DNA from: Quadrisphaera granulorum
Lineage (GTDB): Bacteria > Actinomycetota > Actinomycetes > Actinomycetales > Quadrisphaeraceae
DNA length: 64,000 bases
Assembly: GCF_003149145.1 (NCBI RefSeq)
Contig: NZ_QGDQ01000003.1
Span: forward strand, 1-64,000
Direction: 5' to 3'
Positions 3,760 through 63,606 of this stretch are shown here, piece by piece. Position numbers and translations under genes: made by a program. A model generated the notes under the pieces. The model saw only the letters and a list, made by a program, of their open reading frames with translations, was not told the origin of the DNA and ran no database searches. Numbering within the stretch: the first letter of the stretch is position 1; each line of letters begins with the position of its first letter.

Positions 3760-3812
3760 CGTGATCATGGGAGTTGTGCACACAACCAGTCGTGATCATG
3801 GGAGTTGTGCGC
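3760..3812 (+). repeat. Two direct GTGATCATGGGAG arms
   Basis: Two same-orientation copies of the family A arm (GTGATCATGGGAGTTGTGC...) at 3761-3783 and 3792-3814, about 31 bp apart. They lie between the penicillin-binding protein and the NAD(P)-binding protein gene. Unlike most loci in the window these arms are direct rather than inverted, so they cannot pair with each other. Confidence 0.8.
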
Positions 3813-3855
3813 ACCCGGGAGGCGCAGCCGCCAGCCGCGGGGCAGTGTTGACGGC

Positions 3856-4563
3856 GTGTTCGCCGCCATCGCCGGAGCCCACGGACAGATCGCCCGCCGC
3901 CTCACCCGCCTGCTGGTCGCAGGTGGCGACGAGGTCGTGGGCCTGATCAGGAACCCCGACCATGTGGGCGATGTCGAGGCGGACGGCGCCCGCGCCATCG
4001 TCCTCGATCTTGAGTCCGCGAACGCCGAGGAAGTCGCTGACGCTATCCAGGGAACGGACGCCGTGGTGTTTGCGGCCGGCGCCGGGCCGGGCAGCGGCGA
4101 GGTCCGCAAGGACACCGTCGACAGGGCCGCCGCCGTGCTGCTCGCCGACGCCGCGCAGGCCGCGGGCGTGCGACGGTACGTGTTGGTGAGCTCCTACGGG
4201 GTCGACGCCATGCGTGACGGCGCGACGCCTGACGGTATGGACCCGGTGTTCGTGGCCTACCTGCGCGCCAAGCTTGCCGCCGAGGAGGAGCTGCTGGGCC
4301 GGGCGCTCGGCGGGGCCTTCGAGCTGGCGGTCCTGCGGCCTGGCGGCCTGACCGACGAGCCGGGTGCCGGCACGGTGTCGCTGGAGCGGTCGCTTCCGCG
4401 AGGACAGGTCTCTCGGGACGACGTCGCCGCAGTGGTGGCCGCCCTGCTGCGTGCGCCGGCACTGCTGCCCGCCGAGGAGGACCCGGTACTGGAGCTCATG
4501 GCAGGCGAGGAGCCCGTCGAGGCGGCGGTCACGCGCTCCCTGACGCCCGCTCCCGCCGCCTGA
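3856..4563 (+). CDS. NAD(P)-binding SDR-like protein
   Basis: A 235-residue atypical short-chain dehydrogenase/NmrA-like protein. It has an N-terminal nucleotide-binding loop (AGAHGQIARRL, near residues 5-15), an acidic strand end (VLDLES), the VVFAAGAGPGSG segment typical of this family, and a YVLVSSYGVD strand. The catalytic Tyr-x3-Lys is represented only loosely by YLRAK. The family reduces or senses NAD(P)-linked substrates; the substrate is not predictable. GTG 3856 is chosen because VFAAIAGAHG aligns with the usual start, and the longer frame from 3805 reads through a repeat arm. Confidence 0.82.
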   Translation: MFAAIAGAHGQIARRLTRLLVAGGDEVVGLIRNPDHVGDVEADGARAIVLDLESANAEEVADAIQGTDAVVFAAGAGPGSGEVRKDTVDRAAAVLLADAAQAAGVRRYVLVSSYGVDAMRDGATPDGMDPVFVAYLRAKLAAEEELLGRALGGAFELAVLRPGGLTDEPGAGTVSLERSLPRGQVSRDDVAAVVAALLRAPALLPAEEDPVLELMAGEEPVEAAVTRSLTPAPAA

Positions 4564-4576
4564 CCCGCACCCCTTG

Positions 4577-4627
4577 GTGATCACGGGACGTGTGCTTACC
4601 GCGGTAGGCACAACTCCCATGATCACG
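4577..4627. repeat. Inverted pair of family A arms
   Basis: A variant arm GTGATCACGGGACGTGTGC (4577-4595) faces GCACAACTCCCATGATCACG (4608-4627). It lies between the convergent NAD(P)-binding protein gene and the alcohol dehydrogenase remnant, where it can act as a bidirectional terminator. Confidence 0.75.
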
Positions 4628-4628
4628 G

Positions 4629-4802
4629 TCAGGCGGTGGGGCTGACGAGGATCTTCACCGCCGTCTCGGTGCGGTGGAGCAGGGTGTCGTAGCCGACGTC
4701 GACCAGCTCGTCCAGGCCGATCCGGTGGGTGATGAAGGGCGCGAGGTCGACCTTCCCCTCCTGCGCGAGCCGGATGGTGGCCGGGTGGTCGCCCGCGTAG
4801 CC
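4629..4802 (-). pseudogene. 3' remnant of a zinc-type alcohol dehydrogenase gene
   Basis: The last ~57 codons of a medium-chain (zinc-dependent) dehydrogenase. GYAGDHPATIRL, APFITHRIGLDEL and ETAVKILVSPTA are the C-terminal catalytic-domain pattern. The zinc ligands, Rossmann fold and start are missing. Homology stops at about 4800-4802, exactly where the 3' end of tldD begins on the other strand. A longer open frame runs on to 4922, but it is only the antisense of tldD. I read this as a deletion or rearrangement scar; an assembly join is the alternative. Confidence 0.72.
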
Positions 4803-4973
4803 GGCCCGGTCTTCTGGCAGAGCCTGGACATGCTGGCCGGCCGCGAGCCCGGCGAGTGGCGCGACTGGGGCACCCCCAACTGCGGCAAGGGCCAGCCCGG
4901 CCAGGTCGGGCACACCGGCCACGGCGCCGCGCCCGCCCGCTTCACCGGCGTCCGGGTGGGGGTGCGCGGATGA
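4803..4973 (+). pseudogene. tldD: 3' remnant of tldD
   Basis: The last ~56 codons of TldD. The signature C-terminus is present (FWQSLDML, then TPNCGKGQPGQV and RFTGVRV). The N-terminal and metal-binding HExxxH portion is absent, because the sequence to the left is the antisense end of an alcohol dehydrogenase gene. The stop (4971-4973) overlaps the ATG of tldE as ATGA, so the native tldD-tldE coupling survives even though tldD is truncated. TldD carries the zinc site of the TldD/TldE protease, so its loss should inactivate the complex unless another copy exists. Confidence 0.78.
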
Positions 4974-6412
4974 GCACCGAGAAGTTGAGCACCGAGAACC
5001 GGCTCGACCTCCTCGTGGAGCAGGTGCTCGACGAGGTGCGCCTCCAGGGTGGTGCTGTCAGTGGCAGCGGTGTCGAAGCCACCGCGCGCGCCGACCACCA
5101 CCGCCTGGCCTTGACGCGCTTCGCCAACTCCGAGATCCACCAGAACACCGACGACGACAGGACCACCGTCCACCTGCGCGTCGCCCTCGACGGTAGCCGC
5201 AGCGCGTCGGTGTCCAGCACCAGGACGACGACGACGGCGCTCACCGAGCTGGTCTCCGCTGCGCTGGCCGCCGCCCGGTTGAGCCCTCGTGACGAGCGCT
5301 GGCCCGGGGTGACTGCACCGACACCCGGAGCTGAGGGCGGGCCCGGCGCCGACGAGGCCACGGCCGCCGCCGGCCCCACCGAGAGGGCACGGCTTGTCGC
5401 CGACTTCGACGCCGCTGCCGGCGGCTTCGTCACCGCCGGCTACACGCAGACGACCTCGCTGACCAGCACGCTCGCCACGACGGCAGGGCACCACGTCCGC
5501 GCGTCGTCGACGTCGGCGACCGTCGACGGGATCGCCCGCGGCTCACTCTCACCCGAGGTGCGGCTCGATGGCGTGGCACGCGCTACGGCCCGAGCGCTGG
5601 GGGATCTCGACGCCGCGGCCCTCGGCGCGCAGGCGCTGCGCTGGACCGTGGCGCAGCGGGAAGGCACGTGGCCCACCGTGGAGCGCGGCACGTGGCCCGT
5701 GGTGCTGGCGCCGAACGCGGTGGTCGACGTCGTCGCCGGACTCCTCAGCTCCACGTTCAACGGCCGCGGGGTGCTGGAGGATACGAGCGGGGCGCGGTTC
5801 GGCGAGCAGCAGCTCGACCCGGCGCTCACGCTGCTGGACGACCCACTCGACGCCGGCTCGACGGCGCTGCCCTTCGACACCGAGGGGACGCCCGCGACGC
5901 GGACCGAGCTGGTGCGGGACGGGGTGCCGTGCGGGGTCACCGCTGACCGTCGGACCGCTGCCGCGCTGGCTGAGCAGGCGGAGCGTGCCGGTCTCCAGAG
6001 GGCAGCCGGCGCCTTCGACGCCGCCGACACGTGGGGCCCGGTGGCCCAGGCGCCGGTGCTGGCTCCCGGGAACGGCGGGTCGCTCGAGGACCTGGTGGCC
6101 GGGATGGAGCGCGGGCTCCTGGTGTGCGACCTCTGGTACACGCGTCTGGCCGAGGCGCGGCGGTCGGTCTGGACCGGGCTGACCCGCAACGGCACGTTCC
6201 TCGTGCGCGACGGGCAGATCGTCGGTCAGGTGGGGGTGCTGCGGTTCACGCAGTCCTACCTGGAGGCGCTGGCGCCCGGGTCCGTCGCGGTCGGCTCCGA
6301 GGTTGAGGCGCTGCCGCGGGCGCTGACGTTCGGGTCAGCGGGGACGGCGCGCGTCGTCGTCCCGCCCCTGCGGCTGGCCTCGTGGAACATCACCGGAGGC
6401 GCCGCCACCTGA
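4970..6412 (+). CDS. tldE: TldE/PmbA-like metalloprotease subunit
   Basis: A 480-residue TldD/PmbA-family protein, the non-metal partner of TldD. In characterised systems the pair trims modified peptides and degrades unfolded peptides. The N-terminal domain has the RFANSEIHQN strand, the middle has ERGTWPVVLAP, and the C-terminal domain has the LLVCDLWYTRL and RNGTFLVRDGQIVG motifs. Length is normal. The start ATG overlaps the stop of the tldD remnant (ATGA). With only a truncated tldD here, this protein is either orphaned or served by a TldD encoded elsewhere. Confidence 0.9.
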   Translation: MSTEKLSTENRLDLLVEQVLDEVRLQGGAVSGSGVEATARADHHRLALTRFANSEIHQNTDDDRTTVHLRVALDGSRSASVSSTRTTTTALTELVSAALAAARLSPRDERWPGVTAPTPGAEGGPGADEATAAAGPTERARLVADFDAAAGGFVTAGYTQTTSLTSTLATTAGHHVRASSTSATVDGIARGSLSPEVRLDGVARATARALGDLDAAALGAQALRWTVAQREGTWPTVERGTWPVVLAPNAVVDVVAGLLSSTFNGRGVLEDTSGARFGEQQLDPALTLLDDPLDAGSTALPFDTEGTPATRTELVRDGVPCGVTADRRTAAALAEQAERAGLQRAAGAFDAADTWGPVAQAPVLAPGNGGSLEDLVAGMERGLLVCDLWYTRLAEARRSVWTGLTRNGTFLVRDGQIVGQVGVLRFTQSYLEALAPGSVAVGSEVEALPRALTFGSAGTARVVVPPLRLASWNITGGAAT

Positions 6413-6429
6413 CCCCCGCTCACCCCCAG

Positions 6430-6542
6430 CGTGATCATGGACGCTGTGCACAGAACTCAGCGTGATCATGGGAGTTATGCACGACACGCGTGCACAACTC
6501 CCATGATCACGGACGGATTCGTGCACAACGTCCATGATCACG
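6430..6542. repeat. Four-arm cluster of family A repeats
   Basis: Two forward arms (6430-6452, 6460-6483) are followed by two inverted arms (6490-6511, 6521-6542). All carry GTGATCATGG next to a TTGTGCAC-type extension. Alternative pairings are possible, with either forward arm pairing with either inverted arm. The cluster sits between convergent tldE and glyA. Confidence 0.85.
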
Positions 6543-6558
6543 GCGGGGGGTGAGGGGA

Positions 6559-7854
6559 TTACTGGGCGGAGGTGATGCCCGGGTAGAGCAGGAAGGCCTC
6601 CGTCAGGGTGCGGACGCGCTCACGCAGCGGCGCGACGTCGGCGGCGGGGTCGAGCGCCCCGGCGATGATGTCGGCGACCTCGGCGAACTCCGTGGCACCG
6701 AAACCACGCGTGGCGAGCGCGGGCGTGCCGATGCGCAGTCCGGAGGTGACCATCGGCGGGCGAGGGTCGAACGGCACCGCGTTGCGGTTCACGGTGATGC
6801 CCGCGGCGTGCAGCCGGTCTTCGGCCTGCTGACCGTCGAGCTCGGAGCGGCGCAGGTCGACCAGGGCCAGGTGCACGTCGGTGCCGCCGGTGAGCACGGA
6901 GGCGCCGACGGCGTCGACGTCGGGCTGGAGCAGACGGTCGGCCAGGAGCTTCGCGCCCTCCAGGGTGCGCTTCTGGCGCTCCTTGAACGCCTCCGACGCC
7001 GCGATCTTGAACGCCACGGCCTTGCCGGCGATGACGTGCATGAGCGGGCCGCCCTGCTGGCCCGGGAAGACCGCGGAGTCGAGCTTCTTGGCGTGCTCGG
7101 CGCGGCTGAGGATGAGGCCGGACCGAGGACCGGCCAGCGTCTTGTGCACGGTGGAGGTCACGACGTCGGCGTAGGGCACCGGGCTCGGGTGCAGGCCCGC
7201 GGCCACGAGGCCCGCGAAGTGCGCCATGTCGACCATGAGCAGCGCGCCGACCTCGTCCGCGATCTCACGGAACGCGGCGAAGTCGAGGTGACGGGGATAG
7301 GCGGACCAGCCGGCGATGATGAGCTTGGGGCGGCGCTCCAGGGCGACATCGCGCACGACGTTCATGTCCACGAGGAACGTCTCGGGGTCGACCCCGTAGC
7401 TGGCCACGTCGAACAGCCGGCCCGAGAAGTTGGCCTTCATGCCGTGCGTGAGGTGGCCGCCGTGGGCCAGCTCGAGACCGAGGATCGTGTCACCCGGGCG
7501 GATCAGCGCGTGCATGACGGCGGCGTTGGCCTGCGCGCCGGAGTGCGGCTGGACGTTGGCGTGCTCGGCGCCGAAGAGGGCCTTGGCGCGCTCGCGGGCG
7601 AGCTCCTCGGCGACGTCGACCTGCTCGCAGCCGCCGTAGTAGCGGCGACCGGGGTACCCCTCGGCGTACTTGTTGGTGAGCACCGAACCCTGCGCCGCGA
7701 GCACCGCGCGAGGCGCGAAGTTCTCGCTGGCGATCATCTCGAGGGTGTCCTGCTGGCGGCGGAGTTCGCCGTCGAGGACGGCAGCGATCTCCGGGTCGAC
7801 CTCGGAGAGCGGCGCGTCGGTGAGGGACTGGGCGGGCAGAGCGGTCTGCGTCAC
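6559..7854 (-). CDS. glyA: Serine hydroxymethyltransferase
   Basis: A 431-residue PLP enzyme that interconverts serine and glycine with tetrahydrofolate, the main source of one-carbon units. Visible are [10 protein letters not shown], the [13 protein letters not shown] segment, [12 protein letters not shown], and [13 protein letters not shown] with the PLP-binding Lys238. The GTG start at 7854 has a GAGGAG ribosome-binding site about 8 nt upstream. A ZTP riboswitch precedes it, which links its expression to folate/one-carbon status. Confidence 0.97.
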
Positions 7855-7904
7855 GGGGTGCTCCTCGTGGGTCTGGCGGTCTGCGGGCGTTTAGCACTGC
7901 TCAC

Positions 7905-7995
7905 GACCAGGCCCAGGCGGACGACCCGATCCGTTGCTTTCCCGCCGCTCCCCGGTGGTGACCCACCTTCGCCAGTCGCGACACGACCAGGGTAG
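7905..7995 (-). ncRNA. ZTP (pfl) riboswitch upstream of glyA
   Basis: On the minus strand the leader reads GTCGCGACTGGCG, then a stem with GGTGGGTCACCACCGGGGAG, then CCGCCTGGGC just before the coding region. These are the conserved pieces of the pfl/ZTP motif in their normal order and spacing. The class binds ZTP/ZMP, which accumulates when 10-formyl-THF is short, and turns on one-carbon genes such as glyA. Confidence 0.9.
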
Positions 7996-8033
7996 ACGCC
8001 ACGGGCCGCCCGGTCGACCCCTTTGCCCCCCAA

Positions 8034-8087
8034 CGTGATCATGGGCGTCCGCCACCCTGCACAGGGTGGCGGACGCCCATGATCACG
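8034..8087. terminator. Perfect 26-bp palindrome after zwf (family A)
   Basis: Two perfect 26-bp arms with a 2-nt centre. Each arm has GTGATCATGGGCGTCCGCC at its outer end, continuing to CACCCTG at the centre. It begins about 12 bp beyond the zwf stop and lies upstream of the glyA riboswitch, so it is placed to terminate zwf transcription. GTGATCATGG lies at the outer ends here, opposite to the arrangement at 39347-39399. Confidence 0.85.
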
Positions 8088-8099
8088 AACGGGGGTGGG

Positions 8100-10608: not shown

Positions 10609-10803
10609 CTCCGTGATCATGGGCTTCCGGAGCAATTTCCCTGCGGTCGCCCGGCCCCGAGACCTCTGTCCTCCGCGACCGTGCAGATCTTGGCGTTCGA
10701 TCGACTGCGCCCCGGGAAGACCCGACCGATCGCCAAGATCTACTCGCCCATGGGGACAGAGCCCATGATCACGGCCTGAAAGCGCTCCGGAAGTCCATGA
10801 TCA
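10609..10803. repeat. Composite nested repeat block between purU and the ABC permease
   Basis: The outer parts are family A arms: forward 10612-10633 (GTGATCATGGGCTTCCGGAGC) matched by inverted 10782-10803 (GCGCTCCGGAAGTCCATGATCA), plus a further inverted arm at 10756-10774. Between them is an unrelated inverted repeat, AGATCTTGGCG (10685-10695) and CGCCAAGATCT (10731-10741), with CGATCG near both inner ends. No gene was found in this ~200-bp gap. Confidence 0.75.
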
Positions 10804-10808
10804 GGGGG

Positions 10809-14624: not shown

Positions 14625-14701
14625 GTGACGACCGACGTGCAGAAGTCGTCCGCGAGACCGCCTGAGGCGCCCGGGGTGGACTTCTGCACGTCGGTCGTCA
14701 C
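14625..14701. terminator. Perfect 23-bp inverted repeat (family D)
   Basis: The arms GTGACGACCGACGTGCAGAA+GTC (14625-14647) and their exact complement (14679-14701) enclose a 31-nt loop. It lies between the P450 gene's 3' end (14733) and the start of the sigma operon, so it can terminate P450 transcription. A diverged relative is at 58005-58081. Confidence 0.8.
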
Positions 14702-21910: not shown

Positions 21911-22104
21911 CGTGGCGAGTCTCCTTCTACGAGATGGTCGTGACCTGTCGCCACGTCCATCGACCGAGAGACCGCCCACATGATCCGTTCGGTGGACATG
22001 ATCGGGGGACAGGCAGCTCACCCCGCACTCCCAGGGGTTCTCCCGGCGCGAGGGGTGGCGGCCGCGACCGTGGGCGTGGCACCATCGCCAGCTGAACGAC
22101 GCGC

Positions 22105-22221
22105 GCTCCGGGGTCGGTGTAATTCCGAACCGGCGGTGACAGTCCGCGACCCGACCGCAGCCAGCGGCCGGTGGACCTGGTGGAACTCCAGGACCGACGG
22201 TGAAAGTCCGGAGGGGAGGAG
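22105..22221 (+). ncRNA. FMN riboswitch (RFN element)
   Basis: The leader contains GGTCGGTGTAATTCCGAACC, GGCGGTGACAGTCCGCGACCC, GTGGAACTCCAGGACCGACG and GTGAAAGTCCGGAGGGGAGGA, the ordered conserved blocks of the RFN element. It lies ~160 bp upstream of ribD and should shut off the operon when FMN is plentiful. Confidence 0.95.
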
Positions 22222-22377
22222 CACGCGGCGAGGTCCCGCAAGGGGCACCGCCCGCAGCGCCGTCGGCAGGTCTCAGCGGCCCGCTGCGTCGTCCGCCCCC
22301 TCGGGGTGGCTGACCGGCGGCCGACTGGACTACCCGCCGTCGTCGCCCTCCCCCGCAGCACCCCGGAGTCCGCACCG

Positions 22378-23586
22378 ATGCGGAAGGGGACGGGAATGGC
22401 GGGCCACCAGAGCGGCACAGCGCTCCACAGCGACATCCACAGGGCTGTGGATAACGCTGTGGACAGTCGTGCCGTGGCGCCCGCCGACGCCCTGACCCGG
22501 GCGCTGGAGCTGGCCCGCCGCGGGCCCCTCACCGAGAACCCACAGGTCGGGTGCGTCATCGTGGGCGCCGGCGGGGAGCTGCTCGGTGAGGGCTGGCACC
22601 GCGGCGCGGGCACCGCGCACGCCGAGGTCGCCGCCATCGCGGACGCCGCTTCCCGCGGCAGCGACCTGCGCGGCGCCACGGCGGTCGTCACGCTCGAGCC
22701 GTGCCGGCACACCGGCCGCACCGGCCCCTGCACGCGCGCACTGCTCGACGCCGGCGTGGCCCGCGTGGTGGTCGGCACGCCCGACCCGACGCCGACGGCG
22801 GGCGGCGGAGCCGCCGAGCTGCGCGCGGCCGGGGTCGACGTCGTCGTCCTCGACGACCCGCGACCGCGCGAGCTCGTGAGGCCGTGGGCCCGCGCGCACC
22901 GCCACCACCGCCCGACGGTGACGTGGAAGTACGCCGCGACGCTGGACGGGTACAGCGCCGCGGCCGACGGCTCCAGCCGCTGGATCACCGGGCCGGTGGC
23001 GCGCGCCGACGTGCACGCGCGCCGCGCCCAGCACGACGCGGTGCTCGTCGGCACCGGCACGGCGCTGGCCGACGACCCGGCCCTGACGGTCCGCGACGCC
23101 GACGGCGTCCCGCTGCCGCAGCAGCCGCTGCGCGTGGTGGTGGGTCTGCGCGACCTGCCGGCCGGTGCGCGGCTGCTCGACGGCAGCGCCGAGACGGTGC
23201 ACCTGCGCACCCGCGACCCCCGCGAGGCGCTGGCCGCGCTGTGGGAGCGGGGCGTGCGCTCGGTGTGGCTGGAGGGCGGGCCGCAGCTCGCGGCGGCGTT
23301 CTGGCGGGCCGGGCTCGTCGACGACGTCGTCGCGCACCTCGCGCCCGCGCTGCTCGGCAGCGGCCGCAGCGCCCTGGGCGACCTCGGCGCCACCTCCATC
23401 GACGACGCGCTCCGCCTGGAGCTCGTCGACGCTCATGTGCTCGGGGGCGACGTCGTCGTCCTCGCCCGCCCCACCCCTCCCCGCGACGATCAAGGAAGTT
23501 CTGCACGCCCGGGTGTGCACAACTTCCTTGATCGTCGCGCAGGGGTAGAGATCACCCAGCAGTCCGACCAGCAGCAGGAGGCCTGA
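22378..23586 (+). CDS. ribD: Bifunctional riboflavin biosynthesis deaminase/reductase
   Basis: A ~402-residue enzyme for steps 2 and 3 of riboflavin synthesis. The N-terminal cytidine-deaminase-like zinc domain has TAHAEVAAI and [12 protein letters not shown]. The C-terminal reductase domain has [20 protein letters not shown] and [13 protein letters not shown]. The start is ATG 22378 or ATG 22396 (better SD, AAGGGG). The last ~37 residues after [10 protein letters not shown] are encoded by a family B palindrome (23483-23538) and flanks, so the C-terminus has been rewritten by a repeat. The stop overlaps the ribE ATG (TGATG). Confidence 0.95.
23483..23538. repeat. Family B palindrome inside the ribD 3' end
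   Basis: Arms GCGACGATCAAGGAAGTTCT+GCAC (23483-23506) and the nearly exact complement (23515-23538), separated by 8 nt. They lie wholly within the ribD reading frame. Arms of the same family are at 44938-44986 and 47283-47331. Confidence 0.85.
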
Positions 23587-24236: not shown

Positions 24237-25762
24237 GCACCCCGACCACCAGCCGCCCCGACCACCAGGGCCTGGAGGGCCTGAGCACCGTCGAGGAAGC
24301 GCTCGCCGCGCTGCGCTGCGGCCATCCGGTGCTGGTCCTCGACGACGACGACCGCGAGAACGAGGGTGACGTCATCCTCGCCGCGTCGCTCGCCACCCCG
24401 CAGTGGGTCGCGTGGACCGTCAAGCACGGCTCCGGCTTGCTCTGCGCGCCGTTGCCCGCCGCGTTGGCCGACTCCCTCGGCCTGCCCGACATGGTCGAGC
24501 GCAACGAAGACTCACTGCGGACGGCGTACACGGTCACCGTCGACGCCGCCTCCGGCGTCACCACCGGCATCAGTGCCGCCGACCGTGCCCGCACCGCGCG
24601 AGTGCTGGCCGACCCTGCCTCCGGCCCTGCCGACCTCATCCGCCCCGGGCACGTGCTGCCGCTGCGGGCCCGCCCGGGCGGCGTGCTGGAGCGGCGCGGG
24701 CACACCGAGGCCGCCGTCGACCTGTGCCGCCTCGCCGGGCTGCCGCCGGTGGCGATCATCACCGAGCTCGTGGACCTCGACGACCCCGACGGCGACATGC
24801 TGCGCGGCCCGGCCGTCGTGGCCCTCGGCGCCGCGCACGGGCTGCCGGTCATCACCATCGAGCAGCTCGCCGCGCACCTGCGCTCCGCCACCGAGCCCCC
24901 CGTCCGTGATCATGGGCAGTCGGCCACCTCCGAGCGGGTCCCGCAGCGGCAGCGCGTGGTCGAAGTGGCTCGCGCGGCGCTGCCGACGGAGCACGGAGAC
25001 TTCACCGCCGTCGCGTTCCGTGACCTGGCCACCGGGGCGGAGCACCTGGCGGTGGTCGCCGAGGCGCCGCGCTCGTCGTCGTCCTCCTCCTCTTCTGTCG
25101 CCCAGGGAGCGCCCGCGCCGCTAGTGCGGGTGCACTCGGAGTGCCTCACCGGTGACGCGTTCGGGTCGCTGCGGTGCGACTGCGGTCCGCAGCTGCGCGC
25201 CGCGCTGGAGCGGATCGGCGCGGAGGGCGGGGTGCTGGTGCACGTCGGCGGCCACGAGGGGCGCGCCATCGGCCTGTCCGCCAAGATCGCGGCGTACGCC
25301 CTGCAGGACGCGGGCGCCGACACCGTGGACGCCAACCTCGAGCTGGGGCTTCCCGTCGACGCGCGCGAGTACGGCGGCGCCGCCGCGGTGCTGCGTGCGC
25401 TCGGCGTGGAGCGGGTGCGGCTGCTCAGCAACAACCCGTCGAAGGCGATCGGGCTGGTCGAGCACGGCGTGGACGTGGTCGAGCAGCTCGGGCTGCACAT
25501 CGGTGAGCACGACGACGACGGCGCCAGCTCCACGCTGAGGGGCCCCGCCCTGAGCGCGCCGCTGCGCGAGGCCTACCTGGCCACCAAGCGGGCCCGCATG
25601 GGCCACACACCCCCCACCCCCCGCCCCCCTTCCGCACTTTCCGCGGCAAGTGCGGAACCGGAGGGCTCGGGAAGCGCACTTTCCGCGGCAAGTGCGAGAA
25701 GAACGGGACCGGGGACGACGACGAGCTTCGCCACCACGACCACACAGGAGGAGAAGGCATGA
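24233..25762 (+). CDS. ribBA: Bifunctional DHBP synthase / GTP cyclohydrolase II
   Basis: A 509-residue fusion. The RibB part (about 1-215) has the [10 protein letters not shown] metal/catalytic loop and [13 protein letters not shown]. The RibA part (about 245-450) has the zinc site [14 protein letters not shown] and the GHEGRAIGL catalytic loop. It makes both precursors of the lumazine. Two coding oddities stand out. The RibB-RibA linker contains a family A arm (24904-24928, read as [13 protein letters not shown]) and a run of Ser. The C-terminal ~60 residues are Pro/Ser/Ala-rich and contain two direct family C repeats (25631-25698). Both catalytic domains look intact. Confidence 0.95.
24904..24928 (+). 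repeat. Single family A arm inside ribBA
   Basis: A 25-bp arm, CCGTGATCATGGGCAGTCGG+CCACC, identical to the arm at 63581-63605. It sits in the linker between the RibB and RibA domains and is translated. No inverted partner is nearby. Confidence 0.85.
25631..25698. repeat. Two direct family C repeats inside ribBA
   Basis: GCACTTTCCGCGGCAAGTGC occurs twice in the same orientation (25634-25653, 25676-25695), each a quasi-palindrome centred on CCGCGG. They are translated as SALSAASA twice, near the protein's C-terminus. The same unit occurs as inverted pairs at 36352-36418 and 57036-57102. Confidence 0.85.
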
Positions 25763-26260: not shown

Positions 26261-26313
26261 CGTGATCATGGGCGTCCGCCACCACGTGATGGTGGCGGAC
26301 GCCAATGATCACG
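26261..26313. terminator. Family A palindrome after ribH
   Basis: Arms CGTGATCATGGGCGTCCGCC+ACCA (26261-26284) and the complement with one mismatch (26290-26313), with a 5-nt loop. It terminates the riboflavin operon and overlaps the stop codon (26309-26311) of the convergent metallophosphoesterase gene. Confidence 0.85.
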
Positions 26314-36260: not shown

Positions 36261-36351
36261 GGCGCACGGAGGCTATCCCGGCGACGTCGGTGATCGGCGA
36301 ACCCGCCGGGGTACTCCCCTCCTCCGCCCGCCCCCTATCCCCGCCGCCCTT

Positions 36352-36418
36352 CCCGCACTTTCCGCGGCAAGTGCGGCTCCGTGCCCTTCGTTGGCTCACT
36401 TGCCGCGGAAAGTGCGGG
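36352..36418. repeat. Inverted pair of family C repeats
   Basis: GCACTTTCCGCGGCAAGTGC (36355-36374) faces TCACTTGCCGCGGAAAGTGC (36396-36415). It lies in the 227-bp gap between the start of the SARP gene and the stop of the AEC transporter gene, both on the minus strand, and could terminate SARP-upstream or AEC transcripts. Nothing else was seen in the gap. Confidence 0.8.
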
Positions 36419-36487
36419 AAGGAGGGGGCAGGCCAGCGCGAGCGCGCCACCCTCACGAGCCGCTGACCCGTCGGCCCCTCCCGTGGC

Positions 36488-38804: not shown

Positions 38805-38925
38805 CGACTCCTCATCGGTCCTGGCGGGAGCACCGCTCCCCGGTCGGCCGGAGGGGCCGTCGGTCGGTCGGTTGCTGCGGCGTCAGCGAGCCAGGTCTCT
38901 CAGCCGCTCTGGATGGGTGAGCGCA
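38805..38925 (-). ncRNA. SAM-I-like riboswitch upstream of sfnG
   Basis: The minus-strand leader reads CATCCAGAGCGGCTGAGAGA, then CTGGCTCGCTGACGCC, GCAGCAACC, and later GGTGCTCCCGCC and GATGAGGAG. These are the conserved S-box blocks in order (AGAG-GAGGGA, GCAACC, GGTGC, GATGAG). It ends about 12 bp before the ATG, so control of ribosome access is likely. Confidence 0.85.
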
Positions 38926-39346: not shown

Positions 39347-39399
39347 CAGGGTGGCCGACTGTCCATGATCACCGTGATCATGGACAGTCGGCCACCCTG
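39347..39399. terminator. Perfect family A palindrome
   Basis: Arms CAGGGTGGCCGACTGTCCAT+GATCAC (39347-39372) and the complement (39373-39399), with essentially no loop. GTGATCATGG is central here. It lies between divergent genes, upstream of both, so it is not simply a 3' terminator. Confidence 0.85.
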
Positions 39400-41046: not shown

Positions 41047-41058
41047 CGGAGACACCAA

Positions 41059-41127
41059 GGTGGCAGAGTGTCCATGATCACGGACTTCCCGAGCGCTTCC
41101 CCCCGTGATCATGGACACTCCGCCACC
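41059..41127. repeat. Family A inverted pair
   Basis: GGTGGCAGAGTGTCCATGAT+CACGG (41059-41083) faces CCGTGATCATGGACACTCCG+CCACC (41103-41127), with a 19-nt loop. Downstream of the FAD oxidase gene and just upstream of the S51 peptidase gene. Confidence 0.85.
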
Positions 41128-41155
41128 CGGGTCACCGGCGGCTACCGTGCGCGAC

Positions 41156-41908: not shown

Positions 41909-41909
41909 G

Positions 41910-41995
41910 AGGGTGGCTAGCTGGGGGCACCTCCCGCTAATGCGGGGGACCATGATCACCGTCCTTGCGGTGATCATGGGCAGTTGGCCACCCTG
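41910..41995. terminator. Degenerate family A palindrome between peptidase and purH
   Basis: Outer arms AGGGTGGC / GCCACCCT, inner GGTGATCATGGGCAGTTGG and a diverged partner with an insertion (CTCCCGCTAATGCGGGGG, itself a hairpin). It sits between convergent genes and can serve both. Confidence 0.7.
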
Positions 41996-42002
41996 TGCGG
42001 GG

Positions 42003-44923: not shown

Positions 44924-44937
44924 CCCGCTCCCCGCGC

Positions 44938-44986
44938 ACGATCAAGGAAGTTCTGCACGCCAGGCGTGCAGAACTTCCTTGATCGT
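44938..44986. terminator. Perfect family B palindrome
   Basis: Arms ACGATCAAGGAAGTTCTGCA+CGCC (44938-44961) and the exact complement (44963-44986) around one central base. It separates convergent genes (the membrane protein and sucD). Confidence 0.88.
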
Positions 44987-45002
44987 CACCGGAGTGAGGT
45001 GT

Positions 45003-47126: not shown

Positions 47127-47282
47127 TGGGGCTGCGCCTCCATCGTCGGCCGCTGCGGGTGCCCGCGGACGGGCCGAACCTGCTCGTGGGCCGCTCAGCC
47201 TGCACGCGGGGTGCATCCGCGAGCGTAACGAGCCCGCTCAGCCCCGCCCGACGAGCCCCAGCCCACCCCCACCCCCTCGTTG

Positions 47283-47331
47283 ACGATCAAGGAAGCTCTG
47301 CACGGCGCGCGTGCACTGCTTCCTTGATCGT
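47283..47331. terminator. Family B palindrome downstream of the response-regulator gene
   Basis: Arms ACGATCAAGGAAGCTCTGCA+CG (47283-47304) and CGTGCACTGCTTCCTTGATC+GT (47310-47331), with one internal mismatch. Lies between the response-regulator stop (47350) and the sucC start, so it terminates the two-component operon. Confidence 0.83.
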
Positions 47332-47349
47332 GGGCGGGGTGGGTGTCGG

Positions 47350-53526: not shown

Positions 53527-53560
53527 GCCCCGGCGCCGGCTCCGCTCCGGTCGCCCCCCT

Positions 53561-53639
53561 CCCGACGATCATGCGCCTGCGCGTCACCTCCGCTGCCCTT
53601 CCCCGCAGTGTCGTGGCGCGCAGGCGCATGATCGTCGGG
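53561..53639. terminator. Inverted repeat between Usp and glycerophosphodiesterase genes
   Basis: Arms CCCGACGATCATGCGCCTGC+GCG (53561-53583) and the exact complement (53617-53639), with a 33-nt loop, between convergent genes. The arm begins like families A and B (GATCAT) but continues with a unique extension. Confidence 0.85.
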
Positions 53640-53657
53640 GGGGCGGTCGGTTCCTCG

Positions 53658-56266: not shown

Positions 56267-56284
56267 AGGGACCACTCTGCTCCT

Positions 56285-57010: not shown

Positions 57011-57035
57011 CCCGCCGGCACCCTCCCCCTCTTCT

Positions 57036-57102
57036 CGCACTTTCCGCGGCAAGTGCGCCACCGCGGCCGCGGGAACCGCACTTGCCGCGGAAAGTGCGAG
57101 AG
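57036..57102. terminator. Family C inverted pair
   Basis: CGCACTTTCCGCGGCAAGTG+CG (57036-57057) faces CGCACTTGCCGCGGAAAGTG+CG (57077-57098), with flanks CTTCT / AGAG extending the stem. It follows the PNPOx-like gene by ~25 bp. Confidence 0.85.
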
Positions 57103-57235
57103 GGGGTGGGCAAGGGGCGGCCTCCGGCGACGACCTCGCCGGGCACCCGTGCCCTGCTCCGCGAGCGCAGATCGGAGTTGTCTCTCCTCATCGCCACCGG
57201 CACCCCGCCGGGGCAGGGACACCGAGGAGAACGCC

Positions 57236-58004: not shown

Positions 58005-58081
58005 GTGACGAGCGACGTGCAGAAGTCCCCCGCGAGGCCTCGACCAGGGCCTCCGGGGGACTTCTGCACGTCCGGCGTCAC
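58005..58081. terminator. Family D inverted repeat
   Basis: GTGACGAGCGACGTGCAGAA+GTCCCCC (58005-58031) and the imperfect complement (58055-58081), in the same family as 14625-14701. Between the convergent CHAP-like gene and the nitrilase gene. Confidence 0.8.
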
Positions 58082-58097
58082 GGACGAACCGGCCTGC

Positions 58098-58916: not shown

Positions 58917-59017
58917 CCCGTCATCCTGCCCGGCGATGGACCCGCGAGCACAGGCGTGCGCCCGGAAACGGGCTGACACGCCCCGCCCGCGGGCGCAGTG
59001 TCAGGACCGTGGACACC

Positions 59018-59057
59018 GTCAGGTCCTGAAGGCCGCATCCGGCCTCCAGGACCTGAC
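59018..59057 (-). terminator. Terminator hairpin of pcrA
   Basis: GTCAGGTCCTGAAGGCC (59018-59034) / GGCCTCCAGGACCTGAC (59041-59057), 17-bp stem with one mismatch, beginning 14 bp past the pcrA stop. A partial third copy (GTGTCAGGACC) lies just before it. Confidence 0.78.
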
Positions 59058-59070
59058 AGTGCGGCGGGAG

Positions 59071-61521
59071 TCAGAGCTTCTGGACGGGGGCGTAGCGCAG
59101 CAGCAGACGCTTGGTGCCCTCGCTGCGGAAGTCGACGTGGGCCATGGTCTTGTCGCCGGTGCCCTCGACGGCCACGACCGTGCCCATGCCGAAGGAGTCG
59201 TGGGTGACCCGGTCACCCACGGCCAGCGAGATGACCGGCCGCGAACCTGCTGTCCGCACCCCCGGCGTGCCCGCGAGCTTCGCCTGGGCCGAGGAGTGGC
59301 TATTGCCGTAGCCGCCGGAGTTGTACGTCGAACCGCCGCGACCACCACTGCCGCCGCCGCCCCACCCGGAGGAGCCCGACGCCTCGGCACGCTCCCAGCG
59401 GACCAGCTCGTGCGGGATCTCGTCGAGGAAGCGCGACGGCGGGAAGTACTGCGGCTGCCCCCACGCGCTGCGCGACGCGGCGCGCGAGATCCGCAGGTAC
59501 TGGCGAGCGCGGGTGATGCCCACGTACGCCAGTCGCCGCTCCTCGGCCAGCTCGTCGTCGTCGGCGAGCGACCTCTGGTGCGGGAAGGTCCCGTCTTCCA
59601 GACCGGTGAGGAAGACGACGGGGAACTCCAGGCCCTTCGCGGTGTGGAGCGTCATGAGCGTGACGACTCCTGAATCTTCACCAGCCTCCTCGTCGGCACC
59701 GTCGGCCACGGCGGAGCCGGGGATCTGGTCGGCGTCGGCCACCAGCGAGACCGTCTCGAGGAAGTCGGCGAGCGTCCCCTCGGGGTTGGCCGTCTCGTAC
59801 TCCGCAGCCACGGCCGAGAGCTCCGCGAGGTTCTCCACGCGGGACTCGTCCTGCGGGTCCAAGCTGGCGCGCAGCTCGGCCAGCAGCCCTGACCTGTCGA
59901 GCACCGCCTCGAGCACCGTGGACGGCCCGGCGCCGCCCTCGACGACGGTGCGCAGCTCGTCCATGAGGTCGGTGAAGCCGCGGATGCACGTCAACGACCG
60001 CGCCGCGATGCCCGGAGCCTCCCCCGCGCGCTCCAGCGCCGCCGGGAAGCCGATGCGCTCGCGGTCGGCCAGGGCCGCGACGCACGCCTCGGCGCGCTCG
60101 CCGATGCCGCGCTTGGGCACGTTGAGGATGCGCCGCAGGCTGACGACGTCGTCCGGGTTGGCCAGCGCCCGCAGGTAGGCGAGCGCGTCGCGCACCTCGC
60201 GGCGCTCGTAGAAGCGCGTGCCGCCGACCACCTTGTACGGCAGGCCGACGCGCACGAACACCTCCTCCAGCGCCCGCGACTGCGCGTTGGTGCGGTAGAA
60301 GACGGCGACGTCGCCGTAGCGCACGCCCTCGTCGTCGACGAGCCTGTCGATCTCGGAGGCGACGAAGGCGGCCTCGTCGTGCTCGGCGTCGGCGACGTAC
60401 CCGACGATCTGCTCGCCCGCGCCCTCCGCCGTCCACAGGTTCTTGGGACGCCGGTCGGTGTTCTTGGCGATGACGGCGTTGGCCGCGGACAGGATCGTCT
60501 GGGTGGAGCGGTAGTTCTGCTCCAGCAGCACGGTCTTGGCGTCGGGGTAGTCCTCCTCGAACTCGACGATGTTGCGGATCGTCGCGCCGCGGAAGGCGTA
60601 GATGGACTGGTCAGCGTCGCCGACGACGGTGAGCTCGGCCTGCGGCACGCCGTCGGGCTGCCCCTCGGGTCCCCACGTCGCGCCCGGGCCGCCGACCAGC
60701 TCGCGCACCAGGGTGTACTGGGCGTGGTTGGTGTCCTGGTACTCGTCGACGAGCACGTGGCGGAACCGCCGGCGGTAGTGCTCGGCGACGGCGGGCACGC
60801 CCTGGAGCACGCGGACCGTGGTCATGATGAGGTCGTCGAAGTCGAGGGCGTTGGCCTGCCGCAGCCGTGCCTGATACAGCCCGTAGACCTCGGCGAGGAT
60901 CCGCTCGGCGTGCGTGCCGTCGGCGGCCTTGGCGGCGTGTGCCTCCGGCGTGACCAGCTCGTTCTTGAGGTTGCTGATCTGCGTGGCCATGGCGCGCGGC
61001 GCATAGCGCTTCGGGTCGAGGTCAAGCTCGCGGACGACGAGCGCCAGCAGGCGGCGCGAGTCGTCGGCGTCGTAGATCGAGAAGGAGGAGCGCAGCCCGG
61101 CGCTCTCCGCCTCGCGGCGCAGGATCCGCACGCAGGCCGAGTGGAACGTGGAGACCCACATCGAGCGGACGGCAGGGCCGACCAGCCCCTCCAGCCGCTC
61201 CTTCATCTCACCGGCGGCCTTGTTCGTGAAGGTGATGGCCAGCACCTGCCCGGGCCGGGCTCCGCGGGCGGCCACGAGGTGGGCGATGCGATGCGTCAGC
61301 ACCCGGGTCTTGCCCGAGCCGGCGCCGGCGACCAACAGCAGCGGCGAGCCCTCGTGGAGCACTCCCTCGCGCTGGGCGGGATTGAGGCCTTCCAGCAGGG
61401 CGGCGGGGTCGATCCGGACCACCGGCCGGTCGACGAGCACGCCGGGCCGGGCGTCGTCGGACGACGAGCCGGCAGGGGTCTGCGGGACCGGAAGGGGGAG
61501 GTCGTCGAAGAGCGTGCTCAT
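59071..61521 (-). CDS. pcrA: ATP-dependent DNA helicase (UvrD/PcrA)
   Basis: An 816-residue superfamily 1 helicase (3'-5'), acting in repair, replication restart and mismatch processing. Motif I is GAGSGKT (66-72); motif II VDEYQDTN, motif III GDADQSIYAFRGA, motif IV LLEQNYRST, motif V VTLMTLHTAKGLEFPVVFL and motif VI AYVGITRARQYL follow. The C-terminal tail has a Gly/Ser-rich linker (SSGWGGGGSGGRGG) and a Tudor-like GDRVTHDSFGMGTVV end that binds RNA polymerase in PcrA. Confidence 0.96.
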   Translation of the reverse strand: MSTLFDDLPLPVPQTPAGSSSDDARPGVLVDRPVVRIDPAALLEGLNPAQREGVLHEGSPLLLVAGAGSGKTRVLTHRIAHLVAARGARPGQVLAITFTNKAAGEMKERLEGLVGPAVRSMWVSTFHSACVRILRREAESAGLRSSFSIYDADDSRRLLALVVRELDLDPKRYAPRAMATQISNLKNELVTPEAHAAKAADGTHAERILAEVYGLYQARLRQANALDFDDLIMTTVRVLQGVPAVAEHYRRRFRHVLVDEYQDTNHAQYTLVRELVGGPGATWGPEGQPDGVPQAELTVVGDADQSIYAFRGATIRNIVEFEEDYPDAKTVLLEQNYRSTQTILSAANAVIAKNTDRRPKNLWTAEGAGEQIVGYVADAEHDEAAFVASEIDRLVDDEGVRYGDVAVFYRTNAQSRALEEVFVRVGLPYKVVGGTRFYERREVRDALAYLRALANPDDVVSLRRILNVPKRGIGERAEACVAALADRERIGFPAALERAGEAPGIAARSLTCIRGFTDLMDELRTVVEGGAGPSTVLEAVLDRSGLLAELRASLDPQDESRVENLAELSAVAAEYETANPEGTLADFLETVSLVADADQIPGSAVADGADEEAGEDSGVVTLMTLHTAKGLEFPVVFLTGLEDGTFPHQRSLADDDELAEERRLAYVGITRARQYLRISRAASRSAWGQPQYFPPSRFLDEIPHELVRWERAEASGSSGWGGGGSGGRGGSTYNSGGYGNSHSSAQAKLAGTPGVRTAGSRPVISLAVGDRVTHDSFGMGTVVAVEGTGDKTMAHVDFRSEGTKRLLLRYAPVQKL

Positions 61522-61584
61522 CGTCCAAGGAGCCTACGTCCGACCACCGACACCCGGCTCCCTGCGACGGCGACCCGTGGACGC

Positions 61585-61636
61585 CAGCAGGGTGGCGGGC
61601 GCCCATGATCACGGTGATCATGGGCGTCCGCCGCTG
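61585..61636. repeat. Family A inverted pair upstream of pcrA
   Basis: CAGCAGGGTGGCGGGCGCCC+ATGATCAC (61585-61612) faces GGTGATCATGGGCGTCCGCC+GCTG (61613-61636), head-to-head with no loop. It is ~65 bp upstream of the pcrA start and just after the stop of the 5'-nucleotidase gene (61640), which it probably terminates. Confidence 0.83.
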
Positions 61637-61639
61637 CGG

Positions 61640-63454
61640 TCAGAGCTGGGTGATGCGGCCGGTTCCCGCCTCCGGGTACTGCGCCGCGGTCACGGTGCCC
61701 CCGAGGTCGTCGCGCAGGTACGTCTGCAGCGCCTGCTGCTGCGTGGTGGGCAGCACCTCGAAGGCCGCTCCGTCGAACGCGTCGTAGCCGTCGCTGCCGC
61801 GCAGCAGGAAGTCGATCGACGCCACGGAGATCGTGCCGTCGAGCACCCGCTGCCCGCCGACCACCACCGGTGTGCCGTCGGCCAGCGTCAGGGTCTGCAC
61901 CCGCGCACCGGCCGGCGCGTCCGGGTCGGCGGTGTAGGAGAAGCCCGCCACCTGCGCAAACGACCCCGCCCCGGCACCCGCACCGTGGTCGACGGCGGCC
62001 ACGAACGCCGCCACCGGCAGCTCCGGCGCCACCGCCACGAAGTTGGCGAACGGCGTGACGTCGTAGGTGTCCAGCGCGGACACGTCGCCGACGGGCAGCA
62101 CGGAGTCGTTGCGGATGCCGCCCCCGTTCTGCAGCGCCACCACCGGCGGCTCGATCCCCGCTGCCTCGGCACCGGCGCGCCCGGCCGCCAGCAGCGAGTC
62201 GGCCACGAGCGAGCCCAGCCCCGTCTCCCGCGAGCGCACCGCGTCGCGCCGTCCATCCAGCGGAACCTCGCTGCGGGCCACCACCTGCGAGGCGAGTCCG
62301 TCGACGTAGGCCGCCACCGGCTCCTCCACCTCGGCGACGACGTCGGGGTCGGGCGTCACCGCGTCCGGCCCGGTGGACGTCACGGGCACCGGACGGCTGG
62401 CGACGTCGTCGACGGCCACGAGCCTGCCTTCGGCGTCGAAGTCGACCACGAGCTGACCGACGTAGCGGTACAGCCCGCTCGTGGTGACCACGGGCACCCG
62501 GGCGCCGTCGGCGGCCCCCACCACCGTCGGGTACGCCAGCGGCGCGCCCGCGGCGTCGGTGCTCACCTCGTCGCCGGGCAGCAGCGCGTCGCCCGGGGAC
62601 GCCATGACTTCCCCGCCACCGGCGGACACGACGACGTCGACCCCGCGCAGCTGCGGCACGAGCGCGACCTCGTTGTCGACGTCCTGCAGGTGCGAGACGA
62701 GCACGATCTTGGTCACGCCGTCCGCCTCGAGCGCGGCGGCCTGGGCGTTGGCGATGTCGGCGAGATCCGGGTCGACGCGGACCTCACCGAGGCTCGTGAG
62801 CTCGGGCAGCTCCGGCGTCGTGAGGCCGATGACGCCGAACCGCTCCCCCGCGGACTCGACGACGGTGGACGCGACGACGGTGCCGTCATCCGCCTCGGCC
62901 TGCAGGCGGGGCTCGCCGGACAGGTCGAGGTTGGCGGCCACGAAGGGGGTCTCGTCACTGACGGCGTCGAGGTAGTCGGCGAGGAAGTCGGGCGTGAGGT
63001 CGAAGTCGTGGTTGCCGATGGCGCTGGCGTCGAAGCCCGCGGCGTCGAACGCGAGCGCGTCGTACAGCTCGCCGGTGCCGTCCAGGCGGCTCGCGTCGAG
63101 CTGGGGCCCGGGCAGGAAGAGGTCTCCGCCGGCGAGGGTGAGCACGGGGCCCCGGGCCTCCGCTGCGGCCCGCTGGCGCTCGACCAGGGAGACGAAGCGG
63201 GCGGCACCCGCCTGCTCCGCGCCGGACTCGTCGGTCTCGGGCAGGAGCGCGGACTCGAGGTCGTTGGCGTGCAGCAGGGTCAGCCGCACCCCGCCCTCGG
63301 CGGGGACGGGCGCCGGCTGCTGGGGCGCCACGGGGACGACGGGGACGACGGGTGCTGCAGTGTCAGCGGCCCAGGCTGCGCCTGCGGACCCGAGCACGAG
63401 GGCTGTGGCGGCGAGGGCGGCGGAGGCCGAGGAAGCGCGTCGCGAAGCGGTCAC
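61640..63454 (-). CDS. Secreted 5'-nucleotidase/2',3'-cyclic phosphodiesterase
   Basis: A 604-residue exported phosphoesterase. Signal peptide cleaves near GSAGAAWA. Calcineurin-like motifs are LLHANDLES (metal-site DxH appears as AND), GGDLFLPGP, GNHDFDLTPD, VLVSHLQDVDN and SAGGGE; the C-terminal substrate domain has NGGGIRNDS and FLLRGSDGYDAF. It dephosphorylates nucleotides outside the cell. GTG 63454 gives the best signal peptide; the frame is open to ATG 63529. Confidence 0.9.
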   Translation of the reverse strand: MTASRRASSASAALAATALVLGSAGAAWAADTAAPVVPVVPVAPQQPAPVPAEGGVRLTLLHANDLESALLPETDESGAEQAGAARFVSLVERQRAAAEARGPVLTLAGGDLFLPGPQLDASRLDGTGELYDALAFDAAGFDASAIGNHDFDLTPDFLADYLDAVSDETPFVAANLDLSGEPRLQAEADDGTVVASTVVESAGERFGVIGLTTPELPELTSLGEVRVDPDLADIANAQAAALEADGVTKIVLVSHLQDVDNEVALVPQLRGVDVVVSAGGGEVMASPGDALLPGDEVSTDAAGAPLAYPTVVGAADGARVPVVTTSGLYRYVGQLVVDFDAEGRLVAVDDVASRPVPVTSTGPDAVTPDPDVVAEVEEPVAAYVDGLASQVVARSEVPLDGRRDAVRSRETGLGSLVADSLLAAGRAGAEAAGIEPPVVALQNGGGIRNDSVLPVGDVSALDTYDVTPFANFVAVAPELPVAAFVAAVDHGAGAGAGSFAQVAGFSYTADPDAPAGARVQTLTLADGTPVVVGGQRVLDGTISVASIDFLLRGSDGYDAFDGAAFEVLPTTQQQALQTYLRDDLGGTVTAAQYPEAGTGRITQL

Positions 63455-63544
63455 AAACCGGACGATACGGACATTCCCTGCGGAACGGGAAGCCGAGACC
63501 TTGACGGTTGATGACGCTTCCTTGACCATCCGTCGACACGACCA

Positions 63545-63606
63545 CAGGGTGGCCGACTGCCCATGATCACGGTCGACAAGCCGTGATCATGGGCAGTCGG
63601 CCACCC
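63545..63606. repeat. Family A inverted pair between 5'-nucleotidase and GDPD genes
   Basis: AGGGTGGCCGACTGCCCATG+ATCACGG (63545-63571) faces CCGTGATCATGGGCAGTCGG+CCACC (63581-63605), with a 9-nt loop (GTCGACAAG). Its second arm is identical to the arm inside ribBA (24904-24928). Confidence 0.87.

What the first reader, a model, noticed from the sequence alone, without database searches (positions are those of the whole stretch)
3760..63606. Superfamily of GATC-headed palindromes with co-varying arms
More than a dozen intergenic loci carry arms beginning GTGATCATGG (family A) or CGATCAAGG (family B). Beyond this shared head the extension differs from locus to locus (GGCAGTCGGCC, GGCGTCCGCC, GAGTTGTGCAC, GACACTCCGCC, AAGTTCTGCAC and others), but within each locus the two arms match almost perfectly. 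Heads can be central (39347-39399) or at the outer ends (8034-8087). Families A and B also look related: GTGCACAACTCCCATGATCAC compares closely with GTGCACAACTTCCTTGATCG. Co-varying arms imply either selected pairing (terminator, RNA protection, cruciform) or a mechanism that copies one arm onto the other. No transposase is nearby.
Basis: partly seen in the sequence, partly recalled or inferred. Interest (0 to 1): 0.75.

Follow-up and report, generated by a model that had tools for sequence, protein, structure and literature searches.

The report
Palindrome families paired with nuclease genes
Short hairpin-forming DNA repeats that sit mostly behind genes in this soil-type actinobacterium fall into families, and many of these families also bracket a gene for a DNA-cutting protein, which suggests a little-known kind of self-spreading repeat that the cell appears to keep as gene-end hairpins.

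Summary
The window (genus Quadrisphaera) carries GATC-headed palindromes; the genome has 405 exact GTGATCATGG, densest just behind stop codons. Family A arms covary strongly: 94.4% of cells paired against 78.0% shuffled. At 16 orthologous loci head and layout stay while both arms change. Family B differs: its 11-nt word was seen only in this genome among six sampled, and its arms vary independently. One B hairpin is an in-frame insertion in ribD.

New result: a partner gene. Genes for proteins with AbiEi-like and Vsr-like (DUF559/MTES_1575) regions are bracketed by hairpins of one family, different between nuclease lineages: same family on both sides in 16 of 35, against 3 of 600 controls; with long flanks 16 of 28 against 5 of 298. 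Families A, B, C, E, F and G have candidate cognates, some seen on one side only. This resembles REP/RAYT, but no Y1 transposase was found in 6 of 6 genomes. Elsewhere in the class 8 of 29 loci show it. That the nuclease spreads the repeats is inferred. Transcript ends were not testable.

The parts
3761..3815 (+). family A, two direct units 31 bp apart behind a PBP gene
4577..4626 (.). family A hairpin, heads outside, convergent gap
6423..6549 (.). family A nested hairpin of four units, convergent gap between a TldD/PmbA-like gene and an SHMT gene
8026..8095 (.). family A hairpin, heads outside, behind a glucose-6-phosphate dehydrogenase gene
10613..10804 (.). family A units around a family G-like inner hairpin (10680-10746), convergent gap
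14625..14701 (.). family C hairpin (GTGCAGAAGTC)
23482..23539 (.). family B hairpin inserted in frame in the ribD tail
24906..24930 (+). lone family A arm translated in the ribBA linker
25635..25688 (+). two direct family E words translated in the ribBA tail
26261..26313 (.). family A hairpin, convergent gap behind ribH (lumazine synthase)
36348..36422 (.). family E hairpin
39347..39399 (.). family A hairpin, heads central, in a gap called divergent
41054..41132 (.). family A hairpin, heads central
41910..41994 (.). family A hairpin, heads central, left arm interrupted by a small GC hairpin
44925..44999 (.). family B hairpin, convergent gap
47272..47342 (.). family B hairpin behind a response regulator gene
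53554..53646 (.). family D hairpin (CGATCATGCG), convergent gap; no cognate nuclease found
57025..57109 (.). family E hairpin
58005..58081 (.). family C hairpin
61585..61639 (.). family A hairpin, heads central
63547..63606 (.). family A hairpin, heads central

Best explanation
These are REP-like extragenic palindromes whose families are tied to cognate nuclease genes. SHOWN: in Quadrisphaera, genes for proteins with an AbiEi-like N-terminal region and a Vsr-like PD-(D/E)XK region (DUF559/MTES_1575) are bracketed by hairpins, often of one family on both sides, and the family differs between nuclease lineages. The same families recur as solo copies, mostly behind stop codons, and one copy was gained inside ribD. 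INFERRED: the N-terminal region recognises the conserved head (GTGATCATGG and variants), the nuclease region cuts there, and repair copies the break from another palindrome. That would spread the hairpins and would exchange both arms of a hairpin while the head stays. Copies at gene ends are tolerated and kept as bidirectional terminator-like hairpins. Long selection on pairing, or repeated whole-hairpin copying, would give the covariation of the old family A; the young family B does not show it.
For: Same-family hairpins on both sides of 16 of 35 nuclease genes against 3 of 600 control genes (p 1.3e-19); 16 of 28 against 5 of 298 with both flanks at least 100 nt (p 9.6e-16). Nucleases sharing a palindrome family (labels set by eye) are 72% identical on average, the rest 25% (23 and 409 pairs). 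Family A units lie directly upstream of two nuclease genes of this genome, B arms around L235, E around L294 and L172, G around L297 and L176. Families amplify in single lineages: B in G000, F mainly in G011 and G012, E in G000 and G008. Clean gain of B in ribD. Head and layout kept while both arms change. Layout seen in 8 of 29 class loci chosen by score. The profile matches a solved 'endonuclease-like protein' and a 'mobile intron protein'.
Against: 19 of 35 nuclease genes lack same-family hairpins on both sides by the 9-mer test, and 21 of 29 in the class. For family A only the 5' side is visible because both contigs end inside the gene; C and F are one-sided; D has no cognate. The nuclease genes themselves are mostly inherited in place: 19 of 23 same-family pairs have homologous flanks. 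Nuclease lists of the congeners are incomplete, so the match of copy number to nuclease presence is only suggestive. No cutting, binding or copying was observed. No target duplication was established. No matched control was run outside the genus.
Confidence: 0.6

Rival explanations
1. Ordinary transcription terminators or 3'-end RNA hairpins whose stems evolve by compensatory change; likeness between loci comes from passive duplication, and nuclease genes are simply insulated by them.
For: Position behind stop codons and enrichment in convergent gaps; strong folding; covariation of A; U-lacking hairpin transcript ends exist in Streptomyces clavuligerus (PMC8269248, passages).
Against: Does not explain why one family brackets one nuclease lineage, the lineage-specific bursts, the hairpin inside translated ribD, or the lack of covariation in B. 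G-U is not clearly preferred over A-C in codirectional stems (132 to 106, p 0.10), though ordinary hairpins of the same sample show no clear preference either.
Confidence: 0.2
2. The palindromes are operators of the AbiEi-like region (autoregulation, toxin-antitoxin-like), spread passively by recombination; the nuclease has no part in copying.
For: AbiEi models match 4 of 7 proteins; that AbiEi binds inverted repeats is recalled. Family tracks nuclease lineage.
Against: Does not by itself explain hundreds of solo copies behind unrelated genes or their bursts. An upstream operator would not need a second copy behind the gene.
Confidence: 0.15
3. Template switching during replication copies one arm onto the other (quasipalindrome correction).
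For: Known to homogenise hairpin arms (PMC8794818, passages); A arms covary within every type tested, p at most 0.004.
Against: B arms do not covary; nested partners are not favoured in four-unit loci; arm types jump between recurring forms rather than drift.
Confidence: 0.08
4. DNA uptake sequences, as in Neisseria, that pair up as terminators.
For: Neisserial uptake sequences often form inverted pairs that act as terminators (PMC2397512, passages).
Against: Inside genes 16 heads against 7.8 expected from synonymous shuffles (maximum 11), 10 of the 16 at positions 0 or 31 of a called gene start; several unrelated families coexist; the nuclease link is unexplained.
Confidence: 0.03
5. Classical REP elements moved by a RAYT.
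For: Extragenic, palindromic, high copy, bracketing an enzyme gene.
Against: No Y1_Tnp (PF01797) match in 6 of 6 genomes, while the search rings in 5 of 14 control genomes.
Confidence: 0.02

Closest known systems
REP elements and REP-associated tyrosine transposases (RAYT)
   Same: High-copy extragenic palindromes; an enzyme gene flanked by two copies; family tied to enzyme lineage; composite arrays; palindromy kept by complementary changes (PMC2817692, abstract and passages).
   Different: The enzyme is AbiEi-like plus Vsr-like, not a Y1 transposase; the head is GTGATCATGG-like; many enzyme and palindrome pairs share one genome.
Vsr-like homing endonucleases (I-Bth0305I type, name recalled)
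   Same: Profile match to chain 3r3p 'mobile intron protein', E 0.0037; copying by break repair is proposed here too.
   Different: No intron or intein seen; palindromes on both sides; family not tested for site-specific cutting.
Intrinsic terminators of high-GC actinobacteria
   Same: Strong hairpins just behind stop codons, convergent gaps favoured.
   Different: Recurring sequence families that amplify in single lineages and bracket nuclease genes.
Neisserial DNA uptake sequences in terminators
   Same: Short conserved word in inverted pairs behind genes.
   Different: Not clearly enriched inside genes; long stems with recurring types; nuclease partner.
AbiE (type IV toxin-antitoxin) antitoxin AbiEi
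   Same: N-terminal region matches AbiEi models in 4 of 7 proteins.
   Different: Fused to a nuclease region; no AbiEii partner noted at L235.

Membership tests
REP/RAYT | High-copy extragenic palindromes | tested here: met
   405 exact heads in the genome; 1.65 per kb in convergent gaps against 0.010 in coding
REP/RAYT | Enzyme ORF flanked by two palindromes of its family | tested here: met
   16 of 35 on both sides, against 3 of 600 and 5 of 298 controls; 19 of 35 not by this test
REP/RAYT | Y1 (HUH) tyrosine transposase | tested here: not met
   PF01797 absent in 6 of 6 genomes
REP/RAYT | GTAG or CGTC tag at one end | tested here: not met
   Invariant columns of 48 arm pairs show GTGATCA..TGATCAC; the tag rule was seen in an abstract listing
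Intrinsic terminator | Stable hairpin close behind the stop codon | tested here: met
   Median 9 nt (codirectional) and 13 nt (convergent) from the upstream gene for GATC-head hairpins; folding z
Intrinsic terminator | U-tract after the hairpin | tested here: not met
   Sequence behind window hairpins is G-rich, by inspection
Intrinsic terminator | RNA 3' ends at the hairpin | not testable with these tools
   needs Term-seq
DNA uptake sequence | Word enriched also inside genes | tested here: not met
   16 against 7.8 expected, 10 of the 16 at called starts
Homing endonuclease element | Cuts its own target site | not testable with these tools
   needs a biochemical test
AbiE toxin-antitoxin | AbiEii toxin gene beside AbiEi | tested here: inconclusive
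   L235 is a single ORF between genes that read like clpX and valS (names by eye); neighbours of the others were not scanned

The most novel reading that the evidence does not exclude
A class of selfish palindromic DNA across Actinomycetes in which a Vsr-like nuclease with an AbiEi-type DNA-binding region recognises GATC-headed palindromes, cuts them and spreads them by repair copying: a non-homologous counterpart of REP/RAYT, with about eight nuclease and palindrome pairs in one genome, that supplies many of its gene-end hairpins.
Probability: 0.45. Interest if true: 0.92.

Novelty: new variant of a known kind. Interest (0 to 1): 0.82.

Why it matters
The profile of these proteins matches 130 of 148 sampled genomes of the class, and Pfam lists part of the family as a domain of unknown function. 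If they maintain palindromes, a large orphan family gains a function and many gene-end hairpins of high-GC bacteria gain an origin. It would be a second, independent case of an enzyme keeping a population of palindromes, so ideas drawn from REP/RAYT could be tested on an unrelated enzyme. Old (A) and young (B) families side by side let one watch how arm covariation arises.

Tried and rejected
RAYT-driven REP: no Y1_Tnp in 6 of 6 genomes. Rfam: no family reached its gathering score on the hairpins; hits on them are sub-threshold microRNA models. RNA-level test by G-U against A-C mismatches: inconclusive in codirectional gaps (132 to 106, p 0.10) and convergent gaps (69 to 60); divergent gaps gave 10 to 33 (p 0.0006), the other way, in sequence with no defined strand; orthologues are counted more than once. 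Nested-pairing test on 8 four-unit loci: no clear preference. Distant head pairs (n=31) share no extension. The heads searched as text in papers: 282 papers, the 20 listed concern unrelated subjects by title. Structure prediction from three proteins gave mean pLDDT 47.2, so it was not used and no fold search was run. Plasmid search with the L294 protein: no match. NCBIfam gave no match for the L235 protein. A published link between these proteins and palindromes was looked for in the held papers; none showed in the listings (15 of 361, 12 of 1,171 and 17 of 17 papers); most subscription papers are not held. One search counted hairpins between convergent genes twice and is replaced.

Rows left out: adjacent heads with more than 1 mismatch in sum; gaps under 24 or over 1000 nt for the hairpin counts; loci sharing a hairpin merged; 62 outer hairpins collapsed to 48 distinct arm pairs; 40 called nuclease genes collapsed to 35 distinct. 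Pfam at E 0.001 matched DUF559 or MTES_1575 in 8 of 10 proteins scanned, MTES_1575 mostly below its curated cut-off; L297 and L107 matched only the profile made here.
Full report
What was given. The finding lists GATC-headed palindromes with matching arms that differ from locus to locus. The window is contig C3 of a 4.88-Mb genome in 86 contigs. The genus is Quadrisphaera: a contig of congener G011 has the length (1,065,298) of NZ_VUOH01000002.1, Quadrisphaera sp. INWT6, and the window is syntenic with it.

Observation. The heads are far above chance in the window, and the genome has 405 exact GTGATCATGG, 216 forward and 189 reverse. The zero count of the reversed word there is a weak control, because that word contains a stop codon. 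Inside genes 16 heads are seen in 1.86 Mb against 7.8 expected from synonymous shuffles; 10 of the 16 lie at positions 0 or 31 of a called gene start. In 2.19 Mb from six congeners, 167 exact heads lie at 1.65 per kb in convergent gaps, 0.64 in codirectional, 0.16 in divergent and 0.010 in coding sequence. Strong hairpins of any family occur in 138 of 227 convergent, 244 of 849 codirectional and 30 of 224 divergent gaps, against 12, 32 and 12 after shuffling. The TGA inside the head is the stop codon of the upstream gene in 16 cases in the Quadrisphaera stretches and 17 in the loci, three of them the same places.

Covariation. Forty-eight distinct arm pairs, chosen by heads and spacing and not by pairing, give 94.4% standard pairs against 78.0% shuffled, and a covariation score of 0.399 against 0.113 shuffled and 0.034-0.076 slid. 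It holds within each of four arm types (p at most 0.004). Family B does not covary: 18.57 of 20 within loci and 18.57 permuted, n=14. Its 11-nt word occurs 13 times in 497 kb of this genome and not in 1.63 Mb of five congeners; the shorter CGATCAAGG occurs 3 times there.

Change over time. At 16 distinct orthologous loci with head-carrying hairpins in two or more species, the layout is the same in 37 of 37 species pairs. The extension differs by 4.39 of 11 between species but by 1.76 between the arms of one hairpin. At one locus four species have four extensions, with arms matching at 9 to 11 of 11. Elsewhere another family occupies the gap: 41909-42002 has A hairpins in G000, G009 and G010 and GGACCGCAGCCGAGCG-type hairpins in G008, G011 and G012. 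Direct tandem units keep a 31-bp spacing in 23 of 31 cases, and their extensions resemble each other too (0.721 against 0.532 permuted; inverted pairs 0.82 against 0.508, n=51).

Insertion. The B hairpin at 23482-23539 lies in the ribD tail. G010 lacks 21 residues there, and G008 and G011 also lack the hairpin; VVVLARP precedes it in all three, and SDQQQEA follows in G008 and G010. A scan for palindromes inserted in genes with orthologues returned three, of which this is the clear one; the other two are GC-rich and weaker.

The partner gene. Locus L235 carries one ORF between inverted B arms, beside genes that read like clpX and valS. Its protein matches REase_MTES_1575 (E 1.7e-6), AbiEi_1 and, weakly, DUF559, all below the curated cut-offs. 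I then took DUF559 genes of the genus by Pfam alone, 22 matches in 6 of 6 genomes, and read their flanks: 21 of 22 have a strong hairpin on at least one side, about half have one family on both sides, and the family differs from gene to gene. Counted on 35 distinct genes found with a profile (A2) in the held Quadrisphaera loci: any side 34, both sides 20, same family on both sides 16. For 600 control genes from a pool of 762: 250, 41 and 3. With both flanks at least 100 nt: 16 of 28 against 5 of 298; three of those five are family A hairpins of this window. L235 was fetched because of its B arms, and is not among the 16.

Cognates of the families. E: L294 in this genome and L172 in G008, both sides. 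G: L297 and L176, both sides. C: L279, L285 and L288 in congeners, one side each. F: L215 in G011, one side. B: L235, arms rather than full hairpins. A: L298 and L299 in this genome, with A units directly upstream (two in tandem in L298); both contigs end inside the gene, and their last 95 nt are identical although the starts differ. None was found for D. Nucleases sharing a palindrome family (my labels) are 72% identical on average against 25%, over 23 and 409 pairs; 19 of the 23 pairs have homologous flanks, so the genes are mostly inherited in place.

Beyond the genus. The profile matches 130 of 148 genomes of the class, 71 of 76 genera. Of 29 fetched loci, chosen by score, 19 have a flank hairpin, 11 on both sides and 8 of one family, seven of those eight with TGATC in at least one hairpin. 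No matched control was run in those genomes. Three loci of the hairpin scan also hold the gene (L088 Blastococcus, L102 Micromonospora, L107 Frankiaceae); these were selected by their hairpins. In L107 the two flanking hairpins are exact reverse complements. The inverted pair of the A head itself occurs in 6 of 393 class genomes, in numbers only in G000 and two genomes of one other genus.

The enzyme. In 23 aligned proteins A117, E166, D198, E209 and D225 (numbering of L235) are invariant. The profile matches chain 3hrl 'endonuclease-like protein' (E 9e-6) and chain 3r3p 'mobile intron protein' (E 0.0037). AbiEi models match 4 of 7 proteins. A DUF559 protein of Caulobacter is described as Vsr-like and as responsible for an SOS response in a methylase mutant (PMC12907096, passages). 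That AbiEi binds inverted repeats is recalled.

Mechanism proposed. The N-terminal region binds the head, the Vsr-like region cuts, and repair copies from another palindrome. This is the simplest single process I can name that gives solo copies, lineage-specific bursts, and exchange of both arms with the head kept. Binding, cutting and copying are inferred. The gene-end role is inferred from position and folding (13 of 14 stretches with z below -4). Selection on pairing alone could also produce the A covariation.

Comparison with the known. RAYT genes are described as always flanked by two inverted REPs, with abundance tied to the cognate gene (PMC2817692, abstract and passages). The layout here is alike, but the enzyme is of another superfamily and no Y1 transposase was found, so this is not filed as REP/RAYT; it may work like it.

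Noticed in passing
window 22100-22227 (+), 7904-7989 (-), 38809-38919 (-): FMN and ZMP/ZTP riboswitches above their gathering scores, and a SAM riboswitch slightly below (40.8 against 44.4 bits).
   Followed up: no
L249-L253 (ends of contigs C53, C51 twice, C43, C42): A multi-copy repeat of at least 94 nt starts at five contig ends; in four of five the sequence before it is a palindrome arm broken at CCTT or CCAT of the head (three B-type, one A-type), as if the head were its target.
   Followed up: partly
L042 8227-8419, L045 4400-4594: Composite elements of about 190 bp with B-like heads at both ends around a family G hairpin.
   Followed up: partly
window 25635-25688: Two direct family E words in the ribBA tail encode SALSAASA; G010 has a similar but non-palindromic SALSAAS there, so E may have arisen from or converted this coding stretch.
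   Followed up: partly
heads at distance -4 from stop codons, e.g. L040 5248, L050 9678, L128 both sides: The TGA of the head serves as the stop codon, often after PRP, PS or SP codons.
   Followed up: partly
L173, L188, L214: In three species two direct A units overlap the stop of one gene and are read as the start of the next (GTG ATC ATG ...), with different extensions.
   Followed up: no
upstream of nuclease genes, e.g. L298, L299, L235: TTATCCACAG-like words within 250 nt upstream of 4 of 26 nuclease genes and 0 of 165 control genes.
   Followed up: partly
L052, L083, L123 (record Streptomyces sp. NP160): These contigs are 88-89% identical to Quadrisphaera G010 over most of their length, so the record name looks wrong.
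   Followed up: partly
window 41922-41949: A small GC hairpin interrupts the left arm of an A hairpin, one palindrome within another.
   Followed up: partly
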